Assembly: GCF_900660755.1 (NCBI RefSeq)
Contig: NZ_LR215050.1
Span: forward strand, 1,178,001 to 1,242,000
Length of the DNA stretch: 64,000 nt
Direction of reading: 5' to 3'
Source: Acholeplasma hippikon
Lineage (GTDB): Bacteria > Bacillota_I > Bacilli_A > Acholeplasmatales > Acholeplasmataceae
The translations under genes were made by a program, and so were the position numbers. The notes under the pieces were generated by a model. The model saw nothing but the letters and a program-made list of their open reading frames with translations. It ran no database searches and was not told the origin of the DNA. This document shows, one piece after another, positions 30,734 through 44,718 of this stretch (its first letter is position 1; every line of letters starts with the position of its first letter).

Positions 30734-31477
30734 ATGGCAAAGAAGAAAAAGAAAAATAACGGAGAATTGCTTTATGAAACGATAAGTGTCATTATTGTAT
30801 TTATAGTTACATTAACAATAAAAACTATTTCAATTATTTACGATGCAATAACAATTTATACGTCAGGTTATAAACAAAAATCTCAAAAAGGATTCTTCAA
30901 AACATACTTTGATAAAGGTAATTACGGAGAATTTAAATTATATAAAAAAGCTGTTAGACAATTCGGCAAACCAAATGTTTTAACAAATATTTATCTATCC
31001 CATACAACAACAGATACAACTGAAATAGATGTACTTGCTATTAGTAAAGAAGGTATCTATGTATTTGAAATGAAAAATTATAATGGATATATCTTTGGAT
31101 CTAAAAATGATGAAAATTGGACGCAAGTATTCCACAAAAATGCTAAACATAAATTCTATAATCCACTTAGACAAAATTATGCGCATACAAAAGCACTTCA
31201 AAATTATTTAGAAATTGATGATTCTAAAGTTATTCCAGTTGTTGTTTTTTCTAACTACGCTAAATTAAGTAAGATTAATATAACAGACAAAGAACAAGTC
31301 ATTCAATTAAAGAATTTGAATAGACTTATCAGAAAAACAAGAAAAGTTAAAACTAATGTTTTATCTTTAGAAGAGAAGGAAAGTTATTTAAAAAAACTTA
31401 TCGAACGCTCTTGTATGCCAGATGAAGTAAAACAAAAACATATTGAACAAGTAAATGATTTAAAAATTCAAAAATAA
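30734..31477 (+). CDS. NERD-domain (nuclease-related) membrane protein
   Basis: A 247-aa protein with an N-terminal membrane helix (TISVIIVFIVTLTIKTI) and a NERD domain at about residues 55-170. The core reads GNYGEFKLYKKAV, TEIDVLAISKEGIYVFEMKNYNGYIFG, with the Glu, Asp and Glu-x-Lys residues of the PD-(D/E)xK-like fold. NERD proteins are presumed nucleases or DNA-processing factors. A terminator follows at the stop codon. Confidence 0.85.
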   Translation: MAKKKKKNNGELLYETISVIIVFIVTLTIKTISIIYDAITIYTSGYKQKSQKGFFKTYFDKGNYGEFKLYKKAVRQFGKPNVLTNIYLSHTTTDTTEIDVLAISKEGIYVFEMKNYNGYIFGSKNDENWTQVFHKNAKHKFYNPLRQNYAHTKALQNYLEIDDSKVIPVVVFSNYAKLSKINITDKEQVIQLKNLNRLIRKTRKVKTNVLSLEEKESYLKKLIERSCMPDEVKQKHIEQVNDLKIQK

Positions 31478-31499
31478 AGGGCCAATTGGCCTTTTTTTG
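31476..31499 (+). terminator. Terminator of the NERD gene
   Basis: GGCC-AATT-GGCC extended by A/T pairs, followed by seven T, starting at the stop codon. Confidence 0.88.
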
Positions 31500-31628: not shown

Positions 31629-34600
31629 ATGAATAAATATATAAAAGTGTTATTTTTCGCTTTTATTTGTATCCTTTTGGCTCCCAATATTTCAGCTTTA
31701 GAAGATAATTCAAAGATAAATGTATCGGATTATCAATTTTATCAGTCAACTTATTCAACAATTTATATATCATCAGAGTTAAAAGATATATCAGCGTTGG
31801 AATTAGAAATCTATTATGATTCATCAATTATGGAGATTCAGTCTACGTGGTCGAATCTCTCGAATTATACCACTAACATAAATGTTGAGGGTCAGATTAA
31901 ATTTGCATTTCTCGCTAGTGAGGGGATTAGCGGGTATCAAGACTTATTAATGATAAATATACGTATTAAAGATGGGGCAGCTCTAGGTAGTTACCCTTTT
32001 AGTGTTTATGTAGGGGATGCATATCACTCTGATTTAAGTAAGGCGTTCGTTGAAGGGAAAACATCACGAATATCAATTATTGAATATGTTTCGCAGCCAG
32101 GTAGCATTTATTTTTATGGTGGAATATCTAGAAATCCAATTCCTTATGAAGAAGAGTTTTACATTACACTATATACCTCTAATGCATACAATTTAGCAAC
32201 AGGTACTTTTAATATTTTCTATAATGAAGAAAACCTAGAGCTACTAGAAATAGAACTAACAGAGAACTTCGGTAATGATGTGATTAAAACAATCAATCAT
32301 AATAAAGGATTTAGTTCGATTAGTTTTGTTGATGCAGATGGCATAAATTACTACTCGCAAATTCTTATAGTTCGATTTAAAAATATATCAACGAGACCTG
32401 TTTCAGATTCAATTAGAATCGAACCTAAAAATTTATATAATGCAGACTTGCAAAAATTGAACGCAAGCTCTCAAAGTTGGAATCTTAATTTATCTGGGGA
32501 ACCCCAACAAATAAAGAATAAAATTATGATGAACTCTGTATCAGGTACAACAGATGATGAAATTAAAGTTAAAGTATCGATATCGGAAAATACGATGCTT
32601 GCTGCTGGTGACTTTGTTATTAGTTATGATAAAGACATTTTTAAAGTAAAAGGTATTCAAGTATCCGAAGATATTGAAAAAACAAAGTCTATTTTAGAAA
32701 CACACGTTGAAATAGATAAGGGAACTGTTAAATTTTCATTTATTAATATGGAAGGTCTAATAGAAGCAATTGATCTATTAGAAATAGAATTTGAAATTAT
32801 TCGTAATGATAATGATATCAACAGTACAATTTCCATTTCCACTAGTGGCACCGTAGATAAAACATTTAATCATATATCATTTAATTATGAAAATTCTACA
32901 ATTAGTTTAGATAAATATTATCTTGTTCGATATTTTGATTATCTAGGAAACATTGTCTCAGAACAAAGAATAAGAAGAGGAAATGATGGAATAGAACCTG
33001 AGGCGATTGAAAGAGCACATTATTATTTCACTGGTTATTCCAAATCACGTTATTATGTTTTAAATGACATGGATATTTATCCAGTTTATCAAGCAATAGC
33101 ATATAGAATTACATACGATACTTATGTAAGAAATGCACTTTACTATTACACAATTGAAACTGGAATGTATGTCTTACCTGAATTAGAGTGGGATGGGGTT
33201 ACATATCTTGGTTGGAAATATAACAATGAAATTTATAAAGAAATAAACCTAAGTGAAATTTTATCTGACATTTATTTAGAAGTCGTGTATGTTCAAGGAG
33301 AAAACACACTAGTTCAATTTAGCACAGATGATATTGAAAGTGAAACAGTCACCTATATTGGTGTTGATGGAAAATCAAACTTTAAAGACGGTAAGTTTAT
33401 TGTGCAGTTTGACCGCTTTAAATTAAATGTTAAAGAGATGAAGGCAACAGAAGAAGCTTTAAATGCTGGGTTTGAAGTTACTTTTGAAAAATACAATTAT
33501 AACGGTGAAATTATTTTTACTGTTACAGGTGTAAAAGGTATAACTGAAGATATTTACTTAGCAACCATTATTTTTGAAGCAGTAAATACTGAGGATAATA
33601 TATTGATTTATTTAAGTGTTACACCAACACAAGTAAAAGATCACAAGGGAAATAAAATCGGTTTACAAGCGTTTTATACGTCTTTTGATTTAGGCAAATA
33701 TTATACGGTCACTTATTATGATTTTTATGGACATAAGATATATGAAGAACAGGTGAAAAAGTACAATTATATATCAATACCAACACCTGAAGATATTCCA
33801 GGATATAACTTCGTAGGGTATTCTAAGGAGTATATTCCTGTTGTAGAAGATATGGATATCTATCCAATATATGAAGCGAGAAGATATTCTATTGGGTATT
33901 CAGATTATCTACCAGGAGCTTTATACGAATACACAATTGAGACAGGAAATTATGTGTTACCAAGTGTGGATTGGGAAAGATATGACTATATTGGCTGGAG
34001 ATATAATGGAGAAATTTATAGAGAGATAAATTTAAGTGAAATTCTAGATTATATTTATTTTGAACTAGTGATGATGCCTAGCCAAACAATTGTTTTAGAT
34101 GTGAATGCATTCGATCCGATGGAAAATATTACAGTTACTATTGGAGCAAATAAAGCATCTTTACTTAAAGAAGCAACCTATGAGGTGAGATTTGATTCAA
34201 AAGTATTAACATTTAATAAAATCAAGTTAACTGATACAGCAAACAATTTAAATTATGAATTATTCGCAATTGAATTGTTAGAAAATGGAATATTAACATT
34301 TAAGGTTCGAGGTGAGGAAGTCAGTGATGTTGACATAAATTTAGTGGAAATTACATTTATGTCAAATGAACCAAATCCGTTAACTTCGTATATAGTAGTT
34401 TCTGCTTCACAAGTCTATAATTCGAGTGGAAATAGAATCAAACAACTAAGTAAAACCCAAATCTTTAGTACCTATCCATTTTACACAGTTAGATATTTTG
34501 ATTATGAAGGAAATGTAATTTCTGAACAACGTATTAAAGAATACAATCACGCAATTGAACCTGAAATCCCACAAAGACCAGGACATCTATTTATTGGGTT

Positions 34601-36821
34601 TACGCATTCGCCTTACAATATTACAAGTAATTTAGATATATATCCTATATATTCAATGGAATCATATCGTATTGAATATTCTCATAGTGTAAATAATGCA
34701 AAATATACATTTACAAATGAAGAAGGAATATATGAACTACCTCAAGTTAATATGCCTGGTTATACATATATGGGGTGGAAGTATAAAGATGTTATTTACA
34801 AAAAAATAGATTTAAGTAAGATTTATGAAGATATTTTCTTTGAACTCGTTATTTTTGAAAACAAAAAGATAAGCATCGTTACAGAAAATGAAGGGCTAGA
34901 TAATGATATTAAGACAATCATTCATCTTGATGCAGCATCAAATATAGCTGCAGCTGATTTTATTGTCAAATATGATAAAAATAAATTAAGTGTCAAATCA
35001 ATTAAAATCTTATCTGGTGTTGATGAGACAAATAGCTTAATTATGACACATAATATTTATGATCAGGGTGAAATTAAGTTCTCATTTATAAATCAAGAAG
35101 GATTAAAAGAAGCCTTAGATATGATTGAAATTATTTTCGAGGCAATCAATAAAGAAGAAGAACTAACCACTTTAATTTCGATTGAAGGAAGTGGTATTGT
35201 TGATAAAGATTTCTATCCGATTAATTTAATTTATATGAATGAAGAAATCAAAGTTTTTAAGTTCTACACTGTAAAATATTTTGATTATTTAGGAAACTTA
35301 ATTTCGACTCAAATGATACGTAAATCAAATGATTCAATTGAACCAGAGATAGATACTAGAATGGGATATAACTTTATAGGTTTTAGTGAAGAAACTACCA
35401 ATATAAATAAAAATTTAGAAATATATCCTATTTATAGTGCGATTGAATATAAGATTATATATTCAGAAACACCAAAAAATGCATTAACCACATACACTAT
35501 ATTGACCGATGACTATGTGATTCCCGGATTAGAAAAAGAAGGACACACATTTATAGGCTGGAAATACAATGGAGAGTTTGTAGAAAAATTAAACTTAAGT
35601 GAAATTTTATCAGATATATCATTAGAGTTAGTTTTAGAAGTAAATACGTATGAAATTACTTTTGAATACGATGGCATAATTGAAACTCACCAAGTAGTTT
35701 ATGGCATGCCGATTATCTATCCAAATTTAGAAAGTGAATTATATGCATACTTATGGGACATTGATTATAAGATAATGCCTGCGATGAATCTATATACTAA
35801 GGCAACGTATGTCATAAAAGAACCGGAAGTTGATTTAAAAGATCATTACAATTTGATTTATGGAGAAGAACTAATCATTAAACCTGAAATAATTGCTCCA
35901 TATCAAGGTGTAGAAGTAGCTTATTATTGGATTAATCATTTAAATGAGATGATGATAAAAGATGAGATCATCATTAAAGAAGTTAATGAATCAGGTATTT
36001 ATAAATTAGTACTTAATGTTCAGTATGGTGATGAAAACACTACTTATGTAAGGGAATTTGAAGTTGAAGTTAAACCAAAAATCATTTCAATTTCACTTGA
36101 ACAAAATAGTTTTGTTTATAGTGGTAATGAAATTAACTTAGATTATAGAGTTTATGATAATTTTTCTAAAGAGTTAGTTATTATCAAACCATATTCAATC
36201 ATTGATTCTGGAAATTATTTAGTGGAGTTTGAATTAAATGAACTCATCAAAAATAATTATGTGCTAGATAATAATTTAATTGAAGTCATAGTTCATAAAG
36301 CTGAACAATCAATTAACTTAAGTGATTTTAGTTTTGAGATAGGTTCATATGAAATTAGATTAAATGCTGATAAGGCGTTTGCATATTCATTAAATAATGT
36401 GAGTTTTGTTGCAAAAGAAATCATCGATAACTTAGTAGAATTTACTACTTATCAAGTACATCTAAAGTTCATTGAAACGAATAACTATTTAGAAAGTGAA
36501 TCGATTTTAGTTACATTAACAACAACAGTTGATGGAATCAAACTAATTAATGAGATGAATCAAATTAATGACATAAAACTAAGTGATTTTGATAAACTTA
36601 AAGACTTTAATCGAAGAATTGTTGGCGTCAAAGATGGTTCATATGAAGGTGCTAAAGCAAGACTAGATGAACTAATCCATTTATATAATAATTTGGTTCT
36701 AGACATTAATAATGAATATAAAGAAACAAGACAAAATGGCTTCGCATACGCATATATTGGCTTATCAGCACTTACAATGCTTGCGGCTCCAATCATTTGG
36801 AGAAGAGGTAGAAAACAATGA
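31629..36821 (+). CDS. Membrane-anchored multi-cohesin-like surface protein (scaffoldin-like)
   Basis: A 1730-aa protein with a signal peptide (cleavage near NISA) and a C-terminal membrane helix (AYIGLSALTMLAAPIIW) with basic tail RRGRKQ. Between them are about six modules with the cohesin pattern (introductory strands, then AGDFVISYDKDIFKVKGI, then a GTVKFSFIN strand, then LLEIEFE): residues about 35-150, 157-287, 297-430, 557-690, 819-950 and 1079-1212. From the third on they alternate with four ~125-aa repeats that start YxVRYFDYLGN and contain an IYPIY strand and LGWKYN (InlB B-repeat-like). Residues ~1340-1650 look like further B-repeat/Ig-type modules. Cohesins bind dockerins, and the third gene of this operon ends in a dockerin. 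Confidence 0.8.
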   Translation: MNKYIKVLFFAFICILLAPNISALEDNSKINVSDYQFYQSTYSTIYISSELKDISALELEIYYDSSIMEIQSTWSNLSNYTTNINVEGQIKFAFLASEGISGYQDLLMINIRIKDGAALGSYPFSVYVGDAYHSDLSKAFVEGKTSRISIIEYVSQPGSIYFYGGISRNPIPYEEEFYITLYTSNAYNLATGTFNIFYNEENLELLEIELTENFGNDVIKTINHNKGFSSISFVDADGINYYSQILIVRFKNISTRPVSDSIRIEPKNLYNADLQKLNASSQSWNLNLSGEPQQIKNKIMMNSVSGTTDDEIKVKVSISENTMLAAGDFVISYDKDIFKVKGIQVSEDIEKTKSILETHVEIDKGTVKFSFINMEGLIEAIDLLEIEFEIIRNDNDINSTISISTSGTVDKTFNHISFNYENSTISLDKYYLVRYFDYLGNIVSEQRIRRGNDGIEPEAIERAHYYFTGYSKSRYYVLNDMDIYPVYQAIAYRITYDTYVRNALYYYTIETGMYVLPELEWDGVTYLGWKYNNEIYKEINLSEILSDIYLEVVYVQGENTLVQFSTDDIESETVTYIGVDGKSNFKDGKFIVQFDRFKLNVKEMKATEEALNAGFEVTFEKYNYNGEIIFTVTGVKGITEDIYLATIIFEAVNTEDNILIYLSVTPTQVKDHKGNKIGLQAFYTSFDLGKYYTVTYYDFYGHKIYEEQVKKYNYISIPTPEDIPGYNFVGYSKEYIPVVEDMDIYPIYEARRYSIGYSDYLPGALYEYTIETGNYVLPSVDWERYDYIGWRYNGEIYREINLSEILDYIYFELVMMPSQTIVLDVNAFDPMENITVTIGANKASLLKEATYEVRFDSKVLTFNKIKLTDTANNLNYELFAIELLENGILTFKVRGEEVSDVDINLVEITFMSNEPNPLTSYIVVSASQVYNSSGNRIKQLSKTQIFSTYPFYTVRYFDYEGNVISEQRIKEYNHAIEPEIPQRPGHLFIGFTHSPYNITSNLDIYPIYSMESYRIEYSHSVNNAKYTFTNEEGIYELPQVNMPGYTYMGWKYKDVIYKKIDLSKIYEDIFFELVIFENKKISIVTENEGLDNDIKTIIHLDAASNIAAADFIVKYDKNKLSVKSIKILSGVDETNSLIMTHNIYDQGEIKFSFINQEGLKEALDMIEIIFEAINKEEELTTLISIEGSGIVDKDFYPINLIYMNEEIKVFKFYTVKYFDYLGNLISTQMIRKSNDSIEPEIDTRMGYNFIGFSEETTNINKNLEIYPIYSAIEYKIIYSETPKNALTTYTILTDDYVIPGLEKEGHTFIGWKYNGEFVEKLNLSEILSDISLELVLEVNTYEITFEYDGIIETHQVVYGMPIIYPNLESELYAYLWDIDYKIMPAMNLYTKATYVIKEPEVDLKDHYNLIYGEELIIKPEIIAPYQGVEVAYYWINHLNEMMIKDEIIIKEVNESGIYKLVLNVQYGDENTTYVREFEVEVKPKIISISLEQNSFVYSGNEINLDYRVYDNFSKELVIIKPYSIIDSGNYLVEFELNELIKNNYVLDNNLIEVIVHKAEQSINLSDFSFEIGSYEIRLNADKAFAYSLNNVSFVAKEIIDNLVEFTTYQVHLKFIETNNYLESESILVTLTTTVDGIKLINEMNQINDIKLSDFDKLKDFNRRIVGVKDGSYEGAKARLDELIHLYNNLVLDINNEYKETRQNGFAYAYIGLSALTMLAAPIIWRRGRKQ

Positions 36822-37441
36822 AAAAGATTTTAATGATTTTGAGTTTATTGTTGACATCACTCCTTCTTATGGGATGTAATTTCACAACAGCACCAAATAA
36901 TGAACTGGACGCAGTCAATAAAGTAATTTCAGACTTTAGTTTGAGAAAAACTTTAGGTTATCAATTGATAATTGAACAAACTTATGAAGAAACAATCGTT
37001 AATCGATATGAAGAACAAAAAACATTTGAGATAGTAGGTAGTGAAGTAGTTTCGTACTTCACGATTAACGAACGAAGACTAAATGATCTAAGTGAAGAAG
37101 CACAATTTAGCGAGACGTTAAATAAATACATTTTTAAAAATGAATTGCTTTTGGATGATTTAACTGATGAAGTTATAGAAGAGATTACCACTGAAGCATA
37201 TATGCAATTTAATTTAATTGTTAAATCAATCTCAAAAGAATACTTCGTTTTTTACTCGATTGAAAATGGTATTTTTAAAGGGAATCTTCAAGATGATAAG
37301 GTTAAGGAAGCATTAGACTTAGTGGTTTCTGAAGTTAGTAATGTTCAAATTGAAATTGTATTTTCAAATAATATAAAGCAAATAAAAATAAATTACAAAC
37401 AAGCAAAAACATCTACGCAAATTAAAATTGTATTTTATTAG
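36818..37441 (+). CDS. Small lipoprotein of the cohesin/dockerin operon
   Basis: A 207-aa protein with signal peptide and lipobox (LLLMGC), then a helical and strand region of unknown family rich in Glu, Ile and Lys. Its ATG overlaps the stop of the 1730-aa gene (ATGA) and the subtilase gene starts 14 nt after it, so all three are co-translated. It may assist folding or anchoring of the large partners; nothing in the sequence proves this. Confidence 0.7.
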   Translation: MKKILMILSLLLTSLLLMGCNFTTAPNNELDAVNKVISDFSLRKTLGYQLIIEQTYEETIVNRYEEQKTFEIVGSEVVSYFTINERRLNDLSEEAQFSETLNKYIFKNELLLDDLTDEVIEEITTEAYMQFNLIVKSISKEYFVFYSIENGIFKGNLQDDKVKEALDLVVSEVSNVQIEIVFSNNIKQIKINYKQAKTSTQIKIVFY

Positions 37442-37455
37442 GAAAGGGGATAAAA

Positions 37456-40400
37456 ATGAAAAAAATATTTCTTTCGGTAATGTTCATCGTTAGCTTATTG
37501 TTCTTGGTGGCATGTAATGTCAAAGACAAAGGTGACTCAGAATATGTATATAACGGAAAAGATAGAGAAGAAGTTACGCATTTTGATAAAGATGGTAACT
37601 TATTAGTTCCTTTTGATGTTGCATATCAACTAGAGGTTGATGAAGCATCATATGACAGTCATACGGCACTTGTTAAAATGAAAAAATACGATCTTGGTCG
37701 CCTTCAACATAAACTGTATGAACTAGGTGCTTTAGAAATTGAGCAAAACGTCAATTTAGGAAATGAAGCTTGGTACTTAATAAAATTACAAGATGATAAA
37801 AAACCAAAAGATTTTATTAAAGCAGCAAGACAAGTAGAAGGATTCATCTTTGTTGACTATAACTATCTACATAAAACTGAGACTGTGGGCAGTTATAACG
37901 AAGTAGACATTGATGATGTTTTAAATAATCCAAGAATTGGAGAACAATGGTATTTAGATGCCTTTGGAGTGAAAGATACATGGGATTATTTAGAAGAACA
38001 AAATATGAATTCGGGTGGAGATTCATCAGTTGTTGTAGCAGTTATTGATACAGGGGTAGACTATAATCATAAAGATTTAGCTGCTAATATGTGGGTAAAT
38101 GCTAGAGAAATTCCAAATAACGGTATTGATGATGATGGCAACGGATATATAGATGATTATTATGGGATTAATACAATCGCAAATAATACGGAAGTCTTAG
38201 ACGACCATGGACATGGTACCCACGTTGCAGGTATTATCGCTGCAGCAAATAATAAAGAAGGTATTGTAGGTATTGCCTACCAAACAAAGATTATGGCTAT
38301 CAAAGCAGGTATGTCTAGCGGCTTCTTTACACAATCAAGTATTGCGCAAGCAATTATCTATGCTTATGAAAATGGAGCAGATGTGATTAACATGAGTTTT
38401 GGTGGCTCAAGTCTTTCACTTGCTGTTCAAGATGCTTTATCACTAGCTTATACAAGATCGGTTTTAGTCGCAGCGGCAGGGAATGATGGTTTACCAAATG
38501 AATTAATTCCTGGGTGGTTTGGCCCAGTTATTCCGAATTATCCAGCTGCGGTTCCTTATGTTATTGGGGTTATGAGTGTTGGGCCATCAGGCTTACAATC
38601 AGGGTTCTCTAACTGGGATGGTTACGCTTATTCAAATATTGAGTATGAAGTGTACGCACCAGGTGAAGCAATTTTATCAACTTTACCTAATGATCGATAT
38701 GGTGCATGGTCAGGAACATCAATGGCTGCACCTTATGTATCAGCAGTTGCAGCACTTTTAAGATCGAAATATACAGATAGAGAAATCTATACAAATAAAT
38801 TTATTATGGGTCAAATCAATGGAGCTTCTAAACTTGAAGCATGGACATTTATTCCAGTTCAAATCAATGTTCCAATGATTGTTGATAGTTTGTCAGCATT
38901 TACAACATTACCAAAACCACAAATTAATTTAAATGATTACTATTTATTTGATTCTAAGAAATTAAGTTCAAAAAATAATGGTGATGGCTATGTGGATGCA
39001 GGCGAAATCATTGATGTTGGCGTGGTCATTAGAAATCGTTGGGGTATGAGTAAAGATACCATTGTAACAATAGACACACTAACGCCAGGCGGTGTAACTG
39101 ACCCATATGTTGAAATCATTAAAGGTGAATATAATTTCCAAGGTGTAGGAACATATTCAACAAAAGATAACTTAGAAAGAAATGGTTCCGAAATTAAAGG
39201 GGTAGAAGAATCATTAAGAATTAAGTTAAGAGAAGATACTCCGAATGACTATGTTGTTAAACTAAATGTTAATATCACGTATAAAAATGGACTTGATGAG
39301 GAAGACCAAACAGCGTATAGAAATAAAGATGAATACATCATCTTCAATGTTAGAAGAGGTACAATTCTACCTTCTGTTGTTAGAGAAGATACAACATTAA
39401 CAAAAGATAATTTCTATATTTTAGCAAATACTATGACAGTTTTACCTGGTGTAACCTTGACGGTTGAACCAGGAACACAAATACAATTTTGGTCAAACGA
39501 TCCAAATGATGCGTATGCTGAAAATTCTATGGCATATATTAATGTTCAAGGTAGAATGATTGTACATGGAACTGAGGAAGAAAAAATCAAGATTTTTCCA
39601 AGTGAATTGATGAATCAATTCCGTGTAGAAATCAGAGAATCGAGTGCTGGATTCGTTTCATTTGATTATGTTGAAATTTCTAACCCACACTTAAGAATTA
39701 CTGAAGCACGTCATACATACTTTACAAAAATATATCCAAATATGCCAGATTATTATAGATACTTAAGTGAAGGTAAGATTCATGAATCATACGGTGGCTT
39801 AGAGTTATCTATTAATAATGTGTATCAATCAATTTTCTATGGAATGACTGGATATTACTATTACTATAAACCTCAATTCTATGGAAATCTTTATGATAGT
39901 ATCATTGTTCAAAGTACAATTAATTTCAGATCAGGAGTACTTGAAAATAATGTTATTTTAAATAATTATAAAGAAGGCGAATATGATTCTATTGCATCAA
40001 CGTATTATGCTTCATCAAACGGTGTATCAGTAAATAACATTACTTTTGATAACTATACTGGAAAAACATACATAAGGTTATATTCAAATTCAAGTAAACT
40101 CCCAGAAAGTTGGGATAAACTTGCTGAAAGATTAGATGCTAAAGTTGCCACTTTTGAAAATGTACAAACGATTGAAAGACTCTTTGGAAATTATTATGAT
40201 TTAGCTTACTTTAGTGCCAAAAAAATAAATGGAAATCTAACTTTTGATGATGGCTCAGTTATTGGTAGTGATTCAAATTACCCATATCATGGATATTTTA
40301 ATAGTAATTATAAAGCTCACGCATTACCATCTCAGGCAGTAAATTATGCATATTTTGAGTTTACAAAAGAAAACTATATTTCTTCATTTAATGTGATTGA

Positions 40401-43400
40401 TAGTAATATTTATCTTGATTTAGAAGATAATCATCAAATTCAAATCTCACAATATGACGCAACTAATTTAATATATGAATCATCAGATAACTATATACTA
40501 ACAGTCGATGATAATGGTTTAATTAAGCCAAATAATATCGGGCAAGCAAAAGTTATTATTTATACAGAAGACTTTGGTTTTAGTACAGAAATAACAGTTA
40601 ATGTATCACATCAATTATCACTTGAAGAAGTTATTGTTTATCCAATTGATGAGATTATGGATGTTAATCAAGCGTTCCAATTAGAATATGAATTATATCC
40701 ATATAATACGACTGAAAGAAAACTTATTTTTGAATCAAGTAATCCATCAGTTGCGAGTGTTAATGAACATGGATATATCATAACTAAAGATGTTGGTGAT
40801 GTAACAATCTTTATTAAAAACCAGCAGGGTGATGTGCTTAATGAAGTAAACTTTAAGGTTTCAAATAAAATTAAGTCTCTACAATTTACTAGAAATAAAC
40901 TTCAAACAACATTAGCAAATGATGATGATATTCAATTAATTATTAATCCAATTTACGGTGATAAAGAGGATTTAGTCATTACAAGTACAAACCCAGAAGT
41001 TGCTTATTTTGACGGAGAAAAACTTGTTAAGGTTCAAAATGGATATACATTAATTGAAGCATATGTTAAGGGAACTGATCTTGCAGCAGAGTTATACTTA
41101 GAAGTAGTTGATGAAGTGATTTCAAACGAAATAGATAAAGTAGTAGCTACATACTCACATGTCTTTGTTTTATCTAATAATGAAATTTATGCTTGGGGAG
41201 AGTATATATCTATTCCAAGAAAGATTACTTCGAATACAGAAATGAAAATAGTAGATTTTTATGCGCATGATTATACTTTAATATTAATTGATGAAAATGG
41301 AACAACCTTAATGAGTTATCTTTCAAGTAATGGTACCTTAAATCAAACTAATAGTAATTTTGATTTTAATCAAATAACAAATATCAAGCATATTTTTAGA
41401 GCAAGATACCAGGACACATATTATCTTATTAATGATAAAGATGAATTATTTAGTATCGGAAATAATTATTATGGCTTAATCGGCGATGGTACAACAACAA
41501 ACGTAAATGTTCCATATAAACTAATGAATAATGTTAAAGAAGTTTACTCTACTAATTACTACACATTTATCTTAACAAAGACCAATGATTTATATAGAAT
41601 TGGTGGAAGTAATAATACTGGTAATAAACCAACGTTAATCTATAGAAATATTAAACAAGTATATCAATTTTATCATTCGGTTTCGTTCTATGACGATCAA
41701 AACTACTACAATTTTGGCATTTATGATTATGAACCAACTATTACAGAATACTTATATGTAAATAGTGAATCATACCAAAAATTCCAAATGATTATTGAAG
41801 GTAATACATTATATTTAGGCGACGGAAATAGAATCTCGCCAATTGAAAAAGAAATGATTTATACGTTTGAATCAAATATCATTGATGTTAAACAAAGTTA
41901 TCGTGATATGGTTGTTATAACAGAAAATGAAATTTACATGATTGGACGAAATGACTACAACATGCATCTGTTAAATAACACACGCTCAAACACAGGTATT
42001 TCTAATATTATTCTTAAATCAGGTATAACTACTCCAAATCTTCAAATTGAAAATTCAAATATTTATCATTCTAGATTAGAAGACGATTCGATTGTTATTG
42101 AATTTAATCAGGAAATTTTTAAAGATAGAAACTTTACAAGAATTTATGTCAATAATGGATCAACAGGAAGAAGTATTCCTATAAACACAAGAATTGATGG
42201 TAATAAATTGATTATTACTTCATCATCATTTGTTCATGGACAATACTATTACGTGGTCGTTCAAGATTACTCAGTAAGAAACGTTAATGGAAAACAAAAC
42301 ACTTATTATTCTCAATCATTCAATTATTATGGTATTGATCGACCAATTGAAGTTATCAGTCCAAATGTGGATGATTCAAAAGTGTTTGAACAAGATAAAA
42401 TCGAATATAAAGTTAAATTTAATTTAGTAATCATGTCAAATAATTTTGGAAACATTCATCTTTTAAATGAAGGTAATGAAGTTATTGATTCAATTACGCT
42501 ATCCTTAGTTAACAATGAATTAATCGTACGAGGAACATTGTTAAATGGAACATATCGTTTAATTATTCCAGAAGATGCGTTTGCTAACTATCATGGAAGA
42601 TCAAGTGAAGCGTTAGAATTTAGTTTCAGTGTGGATAAGAAGCTAGTTTATCAAACAAACTCACATGAAAACAACCTAAGAAAAGCAATTGATGAGGAAA
42701 TTAAACTAACATTCGCAAATGATATTACTCTGGATGTAAATGGCATCAGTATCTTAACAAGTGATGGCAATTTGGTTGAATTTGATACTGAAGTTATAGA
42801 AAATCAATTAATCATTAAACCAACATTAGTTCATGGCATGAACTATCAAGTAGTTATTTTAGAAAATAGAATTGTAGACTCACTTGGTTTGGTCAATGAG
42901 AAATTTGAATTTAGATTTGAAACATACCAACCTATTGAATTATTAGGTCAGTCAATATTAGATCAAGCAACTAATATATCTACAAGACAAGATTTCAAAT
43001 TCTATTTTAATTACGCTCAAATAGGACCAGCGTATCAACAAATCAAGTTAACAGAGAAGACAGAGCAAAGTGTTTCAATTAATAAATCACTCAATAAAGG
43101 CGTACTTAATGTATGGTCAACAGGCGTACTTAAACAAGGAACTGAGTATCAATTAGTCATTCCTGAAAATGCACTAATTGACGAAAATGGCATAGGAAAT
43201 GAATTAATTGAAGTGAATTTTGAAACATATACAAATAATAGAAAAGCGATTAGTAGAGAAGATATTGATGAAATCATTCGTAAATTATACCTATCTGGAT
43301 ATAATACTTCATTTACTGGAAATGCTATTTTAAATAATTTCAATTTAACTAATCTTGATTTATGGTTTAGAATCCAAGGTCAATCTACAGATAGTTACAC

Positions 43401-44679
43401 TGCAATCAATGGGGTTGCTGGTAACTTCTGGGGAACAATCGATTTAAACTTAATTCAAAAACACATTATTGATTTTGACATCTTCCCATCATTAGAGGAT
43501 ATTATTATTGGTGAATTCCTAACTGAAGCACCAGAAACTGCATTCCCGTTTGTAGTTGATGTTGAAGTTTATAATGAATCCGGCTTAAAAGTAGATAAAG
43601 TTGGTAATGAATTAATCACGGTTAAAGTTCACTTTAATAAAGACATGGAAACATCCATTCCATTAAGAGTTGCCTTTGGTTCAAGTGCACCATATGCTGA
43701 ACGTTTAATTGAAGGTTCATATGAAACACCACGCATGTGGGTTGGAACATATCAATTAACTACTATTATTGAAAATGGTAATCAATTCTTTAGTATTCAA
43801 AATGGACACGTAGAAGGGCAATCGTTCTTTAGATTAATGCCTGATACAGCAAGATTTAGATTTGAAATTGATACAACCGCTGCACAAGCTATGTTAATGC
43901 AAGCAGAAGCTACTTATGAAGGTATTAGATTAACTTGGTTCCAAGATGACTTTGATACATTAGCAGGATTTAATATTTATAGAAGTGAACAAGAACATGG
44001 TTTATATACAAGGATTAATCAATATGTTTTAGGTATTGATGAAACGACATTATTAGATACTTCTGTACAACCAGGAAAGATGTATTACTATAACTTTACT
44101 GTTGTTAAGACAGATCTTACAGAATCAGAACCTTCCGGCAAAGTGATTGTAAGAGCGTTTGATAAAATGGCTCCAAATATTTACCATACAAGAATTTATC
44201 AAGCATTTACAAATTCAAACTTAGTTATTTCTGCAATTATTAATGATAATATTGCTGTAAACTCGGCTAAGGTTTACTACAGAATTACAGGCGCTGATAC
44301 ATGGAAAGTTTTAACAATGACAAACAATAATGATAAGTATACTGCAGTTATTTCTTCAAGTGATATTACACTTGCTGGATTAGAGTACTATATCGAAGCA
44401 TTCGATGGCATTAACTATACTCGAGATGGAAATGCCGAAAATCCAATTAACACAGTTGTTCAACTTGCGGTTGACAGCAGTGCTAAGGGAGATGTGAATG
44501 GTGATGGCATCGTATCAACACTAGATGCATTAATGATGCTTCAAGCAATTAATGGACGTTTAAACTTGACAGCAGAACAATTCTTAAAAGCAGACTTAGA
44601 TAATAGTGGTAACTTATCAACTTGGGAAGTATTAAAAGTCTTACAATATGCAAGTGGACAAATTTCATCACTTAACTAA
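37456..44679 (+). CDS. Giant subtilisin-family (S8) lipoprotein with C-terminal type I dockerin
   Basis: A 2407-aa protein. The signal peptide has lipobox LVAC. A prodomain (about 45-145, fervidolysin-like) is followed by an S8 protease with the full catalytic set: Asp198 (AVIDTGVD), His253 (HGHGTHVAG), Asn343 (AAAGND) and Ser422 (SGTSMAAPY). After a beta-helix-like section (about 640-920) come Big2-like Ig modules (about 1000-1225), an RCC1-like propeller (about 1230-1510), three SbsA/Big_5-like Ig modules (about 1525-1930) and an Fn3-like domain (about 2150-2240). The last ~65 residues form a dockerin with two calcium-loop repeats, DVNGDGIVSTLDALMML from residue 2346 and DLDNSGNLSTWEVLKVL from 2380. 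It is probably a surface protease docked on the cohesin protein of the same operon. AAAGGGG precedes the ATG. Confidence 0.9.
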   Translation: MKKIFLSVMFIVSLLFLVACNVKDKGDSEYVYNGKDREEVTHFDKDGNLLVPFDVAYQLEVDEASYDSHTALVKMKKYDLGRLQHKLYELGALEIEQNVNLGNEAWYLIKLQDDKKPKDFIKAARQVEGFIFVDYNYLHKTETVGSYNEVDIDDVLNNPRIGEQWYLDAFGVKDTWDYLEEQNMNSGGDSSVVVAVIDTGVDYNHKDLAANMWVNAREIPNNGIDDDGNGYIDDYYGINTIANNTEVLDDHGHGTHVAGIIAAANNKEGIVGIAYQTKIMAIKAGMSSGFFTQSSIAQAIIYAYENGADVINMSFGGSSLSLAVQDALSLAYTRSVLVAAAGNDGLPNELIPGWFGPVIPNYPAAVPYVIGVMSVGPSGLQSGFSNWDGYAYSNIEYEVYAPGEAILSTLPNDRYGAWSGTSMAAPYVSAVAALLRSKYTDREIYTNKFIMGQINGASKLEAWTFIPVQINVPMIVDSLSAFTTLPKPQINLNDYYLFDSKKLSSKNNGDGYVDAGEIIDVGVVIRNRWGMSKDTIVTIDTLTPGGVTDPYVEIIKGEYNFQGVGTYSTKDNLERNGSEIKGVEESLRIKLREDTPNDYVVKLNVNITYKNGLDEEDQTAYRNKDEYIIFNVRRGTILPSVVREDTTLTKDNFYILANTMTVLPGVTLTVEPGTQIQFWSNDPNDAYAENSMAYINVQGRMIVHGTEEEKIKIFPSELMNQFRVEIRESSAGFVSFDYVEISNPHLRITEARHTYFTKIYPNMPDYYRYLSEGKIHESYGGLELSINNVYQSIFYGMTGYYYYYKPQFYGNLYDSIIVQSTINFRSGVLENNVILNNYKEGEYDSIASTYYASSNGVSVNNITFDNYTGKTYIRLYSNSSKLPESWDKLAERLDAKVATFENVQTIERLFGNYYDLAYFSAKKINGNLTFDDGSVIGSDSNYPYHGYFNSNYKAHALPSQAVNYAYFEFTKENYISSFNVIDSNIYLDLEDNHQIQISQYDATNLIYESSDNYILTVDDNGLIKPNNIGQAKVIIYTEDFGFSTEITVNVSHQLSLEEVIVYPIDEIMDVNQAFQLEYELYPYNTTERKLIFESSNPSVASVNEHGYIITKDVGDVTIFIKNQQGDVLNEVNFKVSNKIKSLQFTRNKLQTTLANDDDIQLIINPIYGDKEDLVITSTNPEVAYFDGEKLVKVQNGYTLIEAYVKGTDLAAELYLEVVDEVISNEIDKVVATYSHVFVLSNNEIYAWGEYISIPRKITSNTEMKIVDFYAHDYTLILIDENGTTLMSYLSSNGTLNQTNSNFDFNQITNIKHIFRARYQDTYYLINDKDELFSIGNNYYGLIGDGTTTNVNVPYKLMNNVKEVYSTNYYTFILTKTNDLYRIGGSNNTGNKPTLIYRNIKQVYQFYHSVSFYDDQNYYNFGIYDYEPTITEYLYVNSESYQKFQMIIEGNTLYLGDGNRISPIEKEMIYTFESNIIDVKQSYRDMVVITENEIYMIGRNDYNMHLLNNTRSNTGISNIILKSGITTPNLQIENSNIYHSRLEDDSIVIEFNQEIFKDRNFTRIYVNNGSTGRSIPINTRIDGNKLIITSSSFVHGQYYYVVVQDYSVRNVNGKQNTYYSQSFNYYGIDRPIEVISPNVDDSKVFEQDKIEYKVKFNLVIMSNNFGNIHLLNEGNEVIDSITLSLVNNELIVRGTLLNGTYRLIIPEDAFANYHGRSSEALEFSFSVDKKLVYQTNSHENNLRKAIDEEIKLTFANDITLDVNGISILTSDGNLVEFDTEVIENQLIIKPTLVHGMNYQVVILENRIVDSLGLVNEKFEFRFETYQPIELLGQSILDQATNISTRQDFKFYFNYAQIGPAYQQIKLTEKTEQSVSINKSLNKGVLNVWSTGVLKQGTEYQLVIPENALIDENGIGNELIEVNFETYTNNRKAISREDIDEIIRKLYLSGYNTSFTGNAILNNFNLTNLDLWFRIQGQSTDSYTAINGVAGNFWGTIDLNLIQKHIIDFDIFPSLEDIIIGEFLTEAPETAFPFVVDVEVYNESGLKVDKVGNELITVKVHFNKDMETSIPLRVAFGSSAPYAERLIEGSYETPRMWVGTYQLTTIIENGNQFFSIQNGHVEGQSFFRLMPDTARFRFEIDTTAAQAMLMQAEATYEGIRLTWFQDDFDTLAGFNIYRSEQEHGLYTRINQYVLGIDETTLLDTSVQPGKMYYYNFTVVKTDLTESEPSGKVIVRAFDKMAPNIYHTRIYQAFTNSNLVISAIINDNIAVNSAKVYYRITGADTWKVLTMTNNNDKYTAVISSSDITLAGLEYYIEAFDGINYTRDGNAENPINTVVQLAVDSSAKGDVNGDGIVSTLDALMMLQAINGRLNLTAEQFLKADLDNSGNLSTWEVLKVLQYASGQISSLN

Positions 44680-44685
44680 TTAAAA

Positions 44686-44718
44686 AAAAGTGGACAATGT
44701 CGTATTGTCCACTTTTCT
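44686..44718 (+). terminator. Terminator of the cohesin/dockerin operon
   Basis: Ten-bp stem AGTGGACAAT/ATTGTCCACT with a 5-nt loop, flanked by A and T runs. Confidence 0.9.

What the first reader, a model, noticed from the sequence alone, without database searches (positions are those of the whole stretch)
31629..36821. Alternating cohesin-like and B-repeat modules in the scaffold protein
From residue ~297 the protein alternates a cohesin-like module with a ~125-aa repeat starting YxVRYFDYLGN and ending in a conserved LNLSEIL segment, four times. Modules 3 and 6 share near-identical strands (KFSFINMEGLIEAID and KFSFINQEGLKEALD), while 4 and 5 are more divergent. This points to duplication of a two-module unit and perhaps two binding specificities.
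Basis: seen in the sequence. Interest (0 to 1): 0.55.

Follow-up and report, generated by a model that had tools for sequence, protein, structure and literature searches.

The report
Amplified cohesin scaffold beside dockerin protease
A relative of Acholeplasma carries a membrane-anchored protein with six cohesin-type docking modules, next to a surface protease that carries the matching kind of plug; here the third docking module, with its spacer, has been copied up to four units, whereas two other genomes have one.

Summary
Window ORF 31629-36821 (1730 aa) has six cohesin-type modules; from residue 296 a cohesin and a ~126-aa B module alternate four times. B modules are 41-53% identical (Z 33-50); C3/C6 39% (Z 30); C4/C5 33% (Z 15). 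C3 models as a type I cohesin fold (Z about 14).

The protein is the first gene of a three-gene cluster: cohesin scaffold, small lipoprotein, and a 2407-aa S8 protease lipoprotein ending in a Pfam dockerin. The same cluster occurs in a same-genus genome deposited as Acholeplasma laidlawii QMP CG1-1743 and in Mycoplasmatota bacterium zrk2, each with three cohesins and no extra cohesin-B units. A tree puts window C3-C6 together, inside the third-position class. So the array is a 1-to-4 amplification of the third cohesin plus a B-repeat that had already doubled.

The residue equivalent to the dockerin-contacting Asp39 of C. thermocellum is Asp only in C3 and C6: I predict they bind the protease dockerin, while C4/C5 have lost or changed binding. 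Binding is untested. A new variant of known noncellulosomal cohesin-dockerin systems, not a cellulosome.

The parts
31629..36821 (+). Six-cohesin scaffold gene, 1730 aa: signal peptide, C1-C2-[C3-B3]-[C4-B4]-[C5-B5]-[C6-B6], C-terminal beta-rich region, transmembrane segment, RRGRKQ tail
   Evidence: ORF; Pfam cohesin 79.5 bits whole protein; hydrophobic ends
31710..32087 (+). Cohesin C1 (residues 28-153)
   Evidence: Pfam 30.3 bits; groups with C1 of two other genomes 93/91
32088..32504 (+). Cohesin-like C2 (154-292)
   Evidence: Pfam only 13.0 bits; 31% identical to C2 of G005 (Z 26.6); position-2 group weak, 59/51
32514..32918 (+). Cohesin C3 (296-430), keeps the Asp39 equivalent
   Evidence: Pfam 38.1; model and fold match
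32919..33296 (+). B3: two B-repeat-like halves (431-556)
33297..33701 (+). Divergent cohesin C4 (557-691), Lys at the Asp39 position
   Evidence: no Pfam hit; Z 14 to C6 and 15 to C5
33702..34079 (+). B4 (692-817)
34080..34481 (+). Divergent cohesin C5 (818-951), Thr at the Asp39 position
   Evidence: Pfam 23.6 against cut-off 24.1
34482..34859 (+). B5 (952-1077)
34860..35264 (+). Cohesin C6 (1078-1212), keeps the Asp39 equivalent
   Evidence: Pfam 37.9
35265..35642 (+). B6 (1213-1338)
   Evidence: two Flg_new stretches, 25.4 bits against cut-off 27
35643..36740 (+). C-terminal extracellular region (1339-1704); MBG domains are detected in the two orthologous scaffolds, none here
   Evidence: no Pfam hit protein 9; orthologs
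36741..36797 (+). Predicted membrane segment (1705-1723)
   Evidence: best C-terminal 19-mer, mean hydropathy 1.71, followed by WRRGRKQ
36818..37441 (+). Second gene: 207-aa lipoprotein, no known family; overlaps the scaffold gene by 4 bases
   Evidence: lipobox-like LMGC; no Pfam hit above cut-off; overlap; ortholog in G005 E 5e-12
37456..44679 (+). Third gene: 2407-aa lipoprotein protease, S8 domain at 38023-38778
   Evidence: S8 177.1 bits; lipobox-like LVAC; triad-type D198, H253, S422 invariant in A3
44485..44637 (+). C-terminal type I dockerin of the protease (2344-2394)
   Evidence: 31.0 bits against cut-off 22.9; 38.5 bits in the genome scan
31476..31495 (+). Terminator-like hairpin before the cluster
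   Evidence: 6 found against 3.2 expected in the region
44686..44716 (+). Terminator-like hairpin, 14 pairs, after the cluster

Best explanation
The protein is a membrane-anchored, noncellulosomal multi-cohesin scaffold whose partner is the S8 lipoprotease made from the same gene cluster. The protease, lipid-tethered at its N-terminus, ends in a type I dockerin; a cohesin of the scaffold grips that dockerin and fixes the far end of the protease to the cell surface. Shown: the domain content, the three-gene order in three genomes, joint presence of scaffold and protease, and amplification of the third-cohesin unit in this genome only. Inferred: that the two proteins bind; that C3 and C6, which keep the Asp39 equivalent, are the main binding sites; that C1, C2, C4 and C5 bind weakly, bind something else, or serve as spacers; and that the B modules are stiff spacers that lift the cohesins off the membrane.
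For: Pfam cohesin and dockerin in genes of one cluster. Genes overlap 4 bases and are 14 bases apart, with terminator-like hairpins at both ends. Same scaffold-lipoprotein-protease order in G005/A. laidlawii QMP CG1-1743 and zrk2, dockerin included. In the genus, Pfam cohesins and the protease each occur in the same 2 of 8 genomes. G005 has one dockerin only, that of this protease. C3 model: cohesin fold, Z 14-15 over about 132 residues. Profiles hit type I cohesins in the PDB. Third-position group 99/98, window C3-C6 96/97. Asp39 equivalent kept in C3, C6 and both third-position orthologs, 4 of 12 modules, and in no other; D39 contacts dockerin S11-T12 in C. thermocellum (PMC4728124, passage).
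Against: No binding test and no complex model. Six cohesins for one cluster dockerin is more than needed. The contact argument carries one residue across at about 20% identity; the dockerin has Thr-Leu and Thr-Trp where the C. thermocellum dockerin has Ser-Thr, so contacts may differ. The protease is already lipid-anchored, so docking is not needed merely to hold it on the cell. Co-occurrence in 2 of 8 genomes is a small sample (Fisher p 0.036, not corrected for relatedness).
Confidence: 0.7

Rival explanations
1. The array is mainly a stalk: C1, C2, C4 and C5 and all B modules are beta-rich spacers, copied to lengthen the protein, and one or two cohesins do all the binding. Copy number then sets reach, not valency.
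For: C4 has no Pfam hit and C5 is just below cut-off; both lie on long branches and have lost the Asp39 equivalent. B-repeat-like modules are common in surface proteins of the family (51 of 88 genomes have a match to the C-B profile, most of the listed ones over the B part only).
Against: C6 keeps the full third-position signature beside C3, which a pure stalk does not need. C4/C5 still align over the cohesin length.
Confidence: 0.35
2. Two specificities: C3/C6 hold the protease, and C4/C5 (or C1/C2) hold the second dockerin protein of this genome, a 6124-aa repeat protein.
For: Exactly two dockerin genes in the genome; C4/C5 form a separate pair; the two dockerins differ at the recognition positions.
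Against: The giant lies directly upstream of its own membrane protein, whose N-terminal A2 domain sits next to a Pfam dockerin in 6 of the 7 genomes (of 88) that have A2; three same-genus genomes with that pair (G004, G006, G007) have no Pfam cohesin. A2 itself does not match cohesins.
Confidence: 0.15
3. The scaffold works between cells: cohesins on one cell bind dockerin proteases on another, so that the array serves adhesion or aggregation.
For: Both partners are surface proteins of large size.
Against: Expressed from one cluster, the simplest pairing is on the same cell; nothing here tests trans binding.
Confidence: 0.1

Closest known systems
Noncellulosomal cohesin and dockerin proteins (Peer et al. 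2009; known here by title in a reference list; text not held)
   Same: Cohesin and dockerin modules outside cellulose degradation; Archaeoglobus fulgidus cohesin 2xdh is the top fold match of C3
   Different: Here a conserved three-gene cluster with a protease and a membrane-anchored scaffold, and lineage-specific amplification of a cohesin-B unit
S8 protease with double dockerin of Clostridium thermocellum (Chen et al. 2024, as told in review PMC12484212, passages)
   Same: Subtilase carrying dockerin, proposed to be held at the cell surface by a cohesin of a cell-bound scaffoldin
   Different: There a double dockerin in a cellulosome producer; here a single C-terminal dockerin, a lipoprotein protease, and a dedicated scaffold in the same cluster
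Cellulosomal scaffoldins such as CipA
   Same: Several type I-like cohesins in one noncatalytic protein; cohesin fold
   Different: No carbohydrate-binding module found, no dockerin-bearing glycoside hydrolase in the genome, transmembrane anchor, B-repeat spacers
InlB B-repeat / Listeria-Bacteroides repeat (PF09479)
   Same: First half of B aligns with the InlB B-repeat 2y5p (E 0.0019)
   Different: Two divergent halves per module, alternating with cohesins; below the Pfam cut-off in the window protein

Membership tests
Cohesin domain (PF00963, type I-like) | Sequence profile above curated cut-off | tested here: met
   C1, C3, C6 above 24.1 bits; C5 23.6, C2 13.0, C4 none: met for 3 of 6 modules
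Cohesin domain (PF00963, type I-like) | Jelly-roll beta-sandwich fold | tested here: met
   C3 only: model pLDDT 81.4, pTM 0.58 for C3-B3; Z 14.4 to 3ul4, rmsd 2.8 over 133; 1ohz Z 13.7. C1, C2, C4, C5, C6 not modelled alone
Cohesin domain (PF00963, type I-like) | Binds a dockerin | not testable with these tools
   Only the contact position could be compared: Asp kept in C3 and C6 of the six
Dockerin type I (PF00404), protease C-terminus | Two calcium-loop repeats, profile above cut-off | tested here: met
   31.0 bits against 22.9; loops DVNGDGIVSTLD and DLDNSGNLSTWE
Cellulosome | Dockerin-bearing glycoside hydrolases and a carbohydrate-binding module on the scaffold | tested here: not met
   2 dockerin proteins in the genome, neither with a glycoside hydrolase or CBM above cut-off; none in the scaffold
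Listeria-Bacteroides repeat (PF09479) | Profile above cut-off 27 bits | tested here: inconclusive
   B6 25.4, whole protein 18.7; single repeat of the G005 scaffold 32.2; profile match to InlB 2y5p, E 0.0019
S8 peptidase | Subtilase domain with Asp-His-Ser triad | tested here: met
   177.1 bits; D198, H253, S422 invariant between the two aligned orthologs; the triad motifs are recalled

The most novel reading that the evidence does not exclude
The amplification has produced a dual-code scaffold on a wall-less cell: C3/C6 keep the ancestral protease-dockerin code, while the fast-evolving C4/C5 pair has been re-coded for another dockerin, for instance that of the 6124-aa giant, so that one membrane scaffold couples a protease to a giant surface repeat protein.
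Probability: 0.13. Interest if true: 0.65.

Novelty: new variant of a known kind. Interest (0 to 1): 0.45.

Why it matters
Cohesin-dockerin biology is known mainly from cellulosomes. Here a small genome with only two dockerin genes keeps a cluster in which a cohesin scaffold travels with a protease, and one lineage has raised the third-cohesin unit from one to four. With one to three dockerins per genome, the cohesin code can be tested completely: every cohesin against every dockerin. That would show whether repeat amplification adds valency, specificity or just length. It also offers a way for bacteria without a cell wall to build organised surface complexes.

Tried and rejected
Whole-protein self-BLAST gave only the trivial match (one search listed no off-diagonal pair, another the full-length row only), so modules were compared one by one. 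A genome-contig scan with the scaffold protein found no relative; a second scan with the protease alignment gave three loci, one of them a 5.9-kb fragment (Solobacterium UBA3303) without flanks. Idea that the N-terminal A2 domain of the giant's neighbour is a divergent cohesin: no Pfam hit, no profile match to the third-position cohesins (hhalign probability 3.2), and its model has pLDDT 46.9, too low to search; left open, although in G020 two Pfam cohesins stand in that gene position. Tree of whole B modules: unresolved; neither B4+B5 (p-AU 0.28) nor B3+B6 (p-AU 0.36) is rejected. Nine-module cohesin tree without zrk2 had weak support (68/86) for C3-C6; adding zrk2 gave 96/97, but the program warns of long branches (C1, C5). 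PDB phmmer with the whole protein gave nothing convincing (best E 0.079). The order-wide cohesin scan covered 95 genomes of at least 90% completeness and found 7 with a match.

Literature. Seen as search listings only, unless said: cohesin+dockerin with Acholeplasma (4 papers), Mollicutes, A. laidlawii+genome+dockerin, noncellulosomal, Izemoplasma/Mycoplasmatota (466 with at least two terms, 20 listed), subtilisin, contact residues, Tenericutes, Acholeplasma surface proteins (8 listed). Passages read: PMC10266427 (reports a dockerin in an Acholeplasma single-cell genome, cohesin only in another taxon), PMC5817068, PMC12484212, PMC11557425, PMC5772552, PMC4728124, PMC7301438 and PMC4221730, both with 0 occurrences of cohesin or dockerin, PMC6030884, PMC6071333. 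In these searches I saw no report of this gene cluster; only one open-licence library was searched and Peer et al. 2009 was not held.

Full report
Observation. The ORF at 31629-36821 encodes 1730 aa. From residue 296, a cohesin-like module and a ~126-aa module alternate four times after two further cohesin-like modules. Local alignments against 200 shuffles give Z 33-50 for all 6 pairs of B modules (41-53% identity), Z 30 for C3/C6 (39%), Z 15 for C4/C5 (33%). Against that, C1 and C2 are remote: C1/C4, C1/C5 and C2/C4 are not above chance (Z under 2), and Pfam sees C1, C3 and C6 above cut-off, C5 just below it, C2 far below, C4 not at all. DNA similarity between modules is low and patchy, so the duplications are not recent.

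Nature of the modules. A model of C3-B3 (five aligned sequences, pLDDT 81.4, pTM 0.58) matches solved cohesins: 2xdh Z 15.0, 3ul4 Z 14.4, 1ohz Z 13.7 over about 130 residues; Foldseek's listed best 50 of the PDB are all cohesins or cohesin complexes. By sequence, profiles of these modules reach cohesins 3ul4 (E 4.6e-5) and 1g1k (E 7.6e-5) and, for B, the InlB B-repeat 2y5p (E 0.0019). Each B is a tandem of two B-repeat-like halves: Pfam finds two stretches in B6. In a tree of halves all four second halves form one group (100/100), while first halves fall with the single repeats of the two other genomes (that side is unresolved inside).

Surroundings. The gene is followed, after a 4-base overlap, by a 207-aa lipoprotein and, 14 bases on, by a 2407-aa S8 protease with a lipobox and a C-terminal type I dockerin. 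Terminator-like hairpins lie at 31476-31495 and 44686-44716. The scaffold has a signal-like N-terminus and a C-terminal hydrophobic segment with a basic tail. The window's genome (1.47 Mb, 2 contigs) has two dockerin genes; the only gene with cohesin matches over the cut-off is this one, while one other gene has a weak match of 11.9 bits.

Relatives. Genome G005, same genus, has the same three genes (scaffold 972 aa, three cohesins; protease 44% identical). Mycoplasmatota bacterium zrk2 has them too (scaffold 1292 aa with three cohesins, lipoprotein 238 aa, protease 2499 aa with dockerin). In the genus, Pfam cohesins and the protease occur in the same 2 of 8 genomes. In the family, cohesins are patchy: 9 of 88 genomes; dockerins 14 of 88. 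Full cohesin-B units appear in the window genome (four) and, with a single B-repeat, once in G005; in the listed matches of other genomes the C-B profile covers the B part, with a few reaching into the cohesin part (not all matches were listed).

History. A tree of the 12 cohesins of the three scaffolds recovers the positions: third position 99/98, first 93/91, second weak at 59/51; window C3-C6 group at 96/97, C4+C5 at 96/95. The branches are long and the program warns of it. The simplest history is C1-C2-C3-single repeat, then a doubled repeat, then one C3-BB unit becoming four. Whether cohesin and B always moved together cannot be shown, as the B tree is unresolved. That the two relatives did not lose units cannot be excluded either, but would need two losses.

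Function. In C. thermocellum, cohesin D39 contacts dockerin S11-T12 (PMC4728124, passage), and Asn37, Asp39, Gly123 and Ala125 touch the Ser/Thr motif (PMC5772552, passages). In three alignment modes the D39 column holds Asp in C3, C6 and the third cohesins of G005 and zrk2, and in none of the other 8 of 12 modules (C1 Glu, C2 Thr, C4 Lys, C5 Thr). Other residue labels printed in that call rest on recall. Hence the prediction that C3 and C6 bind the protease dockerin. The dockerins of the three proteases have Thr/Val-Leu and Thr/Ala-Trp at the recognition positions, unlike the Ser-Thr of C. thermocellum, so the exact contacts must differ.

A second, separate pair in this genome. The other dockerin closes a 6124-aa protein of GLUG and B-repeat motifs. 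Directly downstream lies a 2613-aa protein of cadherin-like repeats with a hydrophobic C-terminal segment; its N-terminal domain (A2) occurs in 7 of 88 family genomes, in 6 of them beside a Pfam dockerin (G000, G004, G006, G007, G008, G010; not G001). A2 is not shown to be a cohesin. G004, G006 and G007 have this pair without any Pfam cohesin, G005 has the protease cluster without A2: the two systems come and go separately, which speaks against a shared scaffold, though not conclusively for G000, which has both.

Known or new. Cohesins, dockerins, B-repeats and dockerin-bearing S8 proteases are all known. The cellulosome label fails: no dockerin-bearing glycoside hydrolase or carbohydrate-binding module was found above cut-off. 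I rate it a new variant of the noncellulosomal cohesin-dockerin kind. That Mollicutes lack a cell wall is stated for the class in PMC5817068 (passage).

Noticed in passing
L007 630-19004 and L037 123-7964 (own genome, C1:1299129-1325363): A 6124-aa GLUG/B-repeat protein ending in a dockerin, next to a 2613-aa cadherin-like protein with a hydrophobic C-terminal segment; the N-terminal A2 domain sits beside a Pfam dockerin in 6 of the 7 genomes (of 88) that have it: perhaps an unrecognised dockerin receptor.
   Followed up: partly
L007 630-19004: The giant holds long stretches that look identical to each other in its GLUG half (seen by eye in the translation), as if recently duplicated.
   Followed up: no
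L042; zrk2 genome C1:1008087-1008665; G018:C35; G042:C10: Single reading frames that carry both a cohesin and a dockerin: could polymerise or close on themselves.
   Followed up: no
L008 1424-2737: A 437-aa lipoprotein-like protein with a weak cohesin match (11.9 bits), encoded beside what look like glycan-degrading enzymes (by eye).
   Followed up: no
window 36818-37441: The small middle lipoprotein is kept in all three clusters but matches no known family above cut-off; its role is unknown.
   Followed up: partly
L034 (G020): The gene next to the dockerin giant carries two Pfam cohesins where other genomes have the A2 domain.
   Followed up: partly
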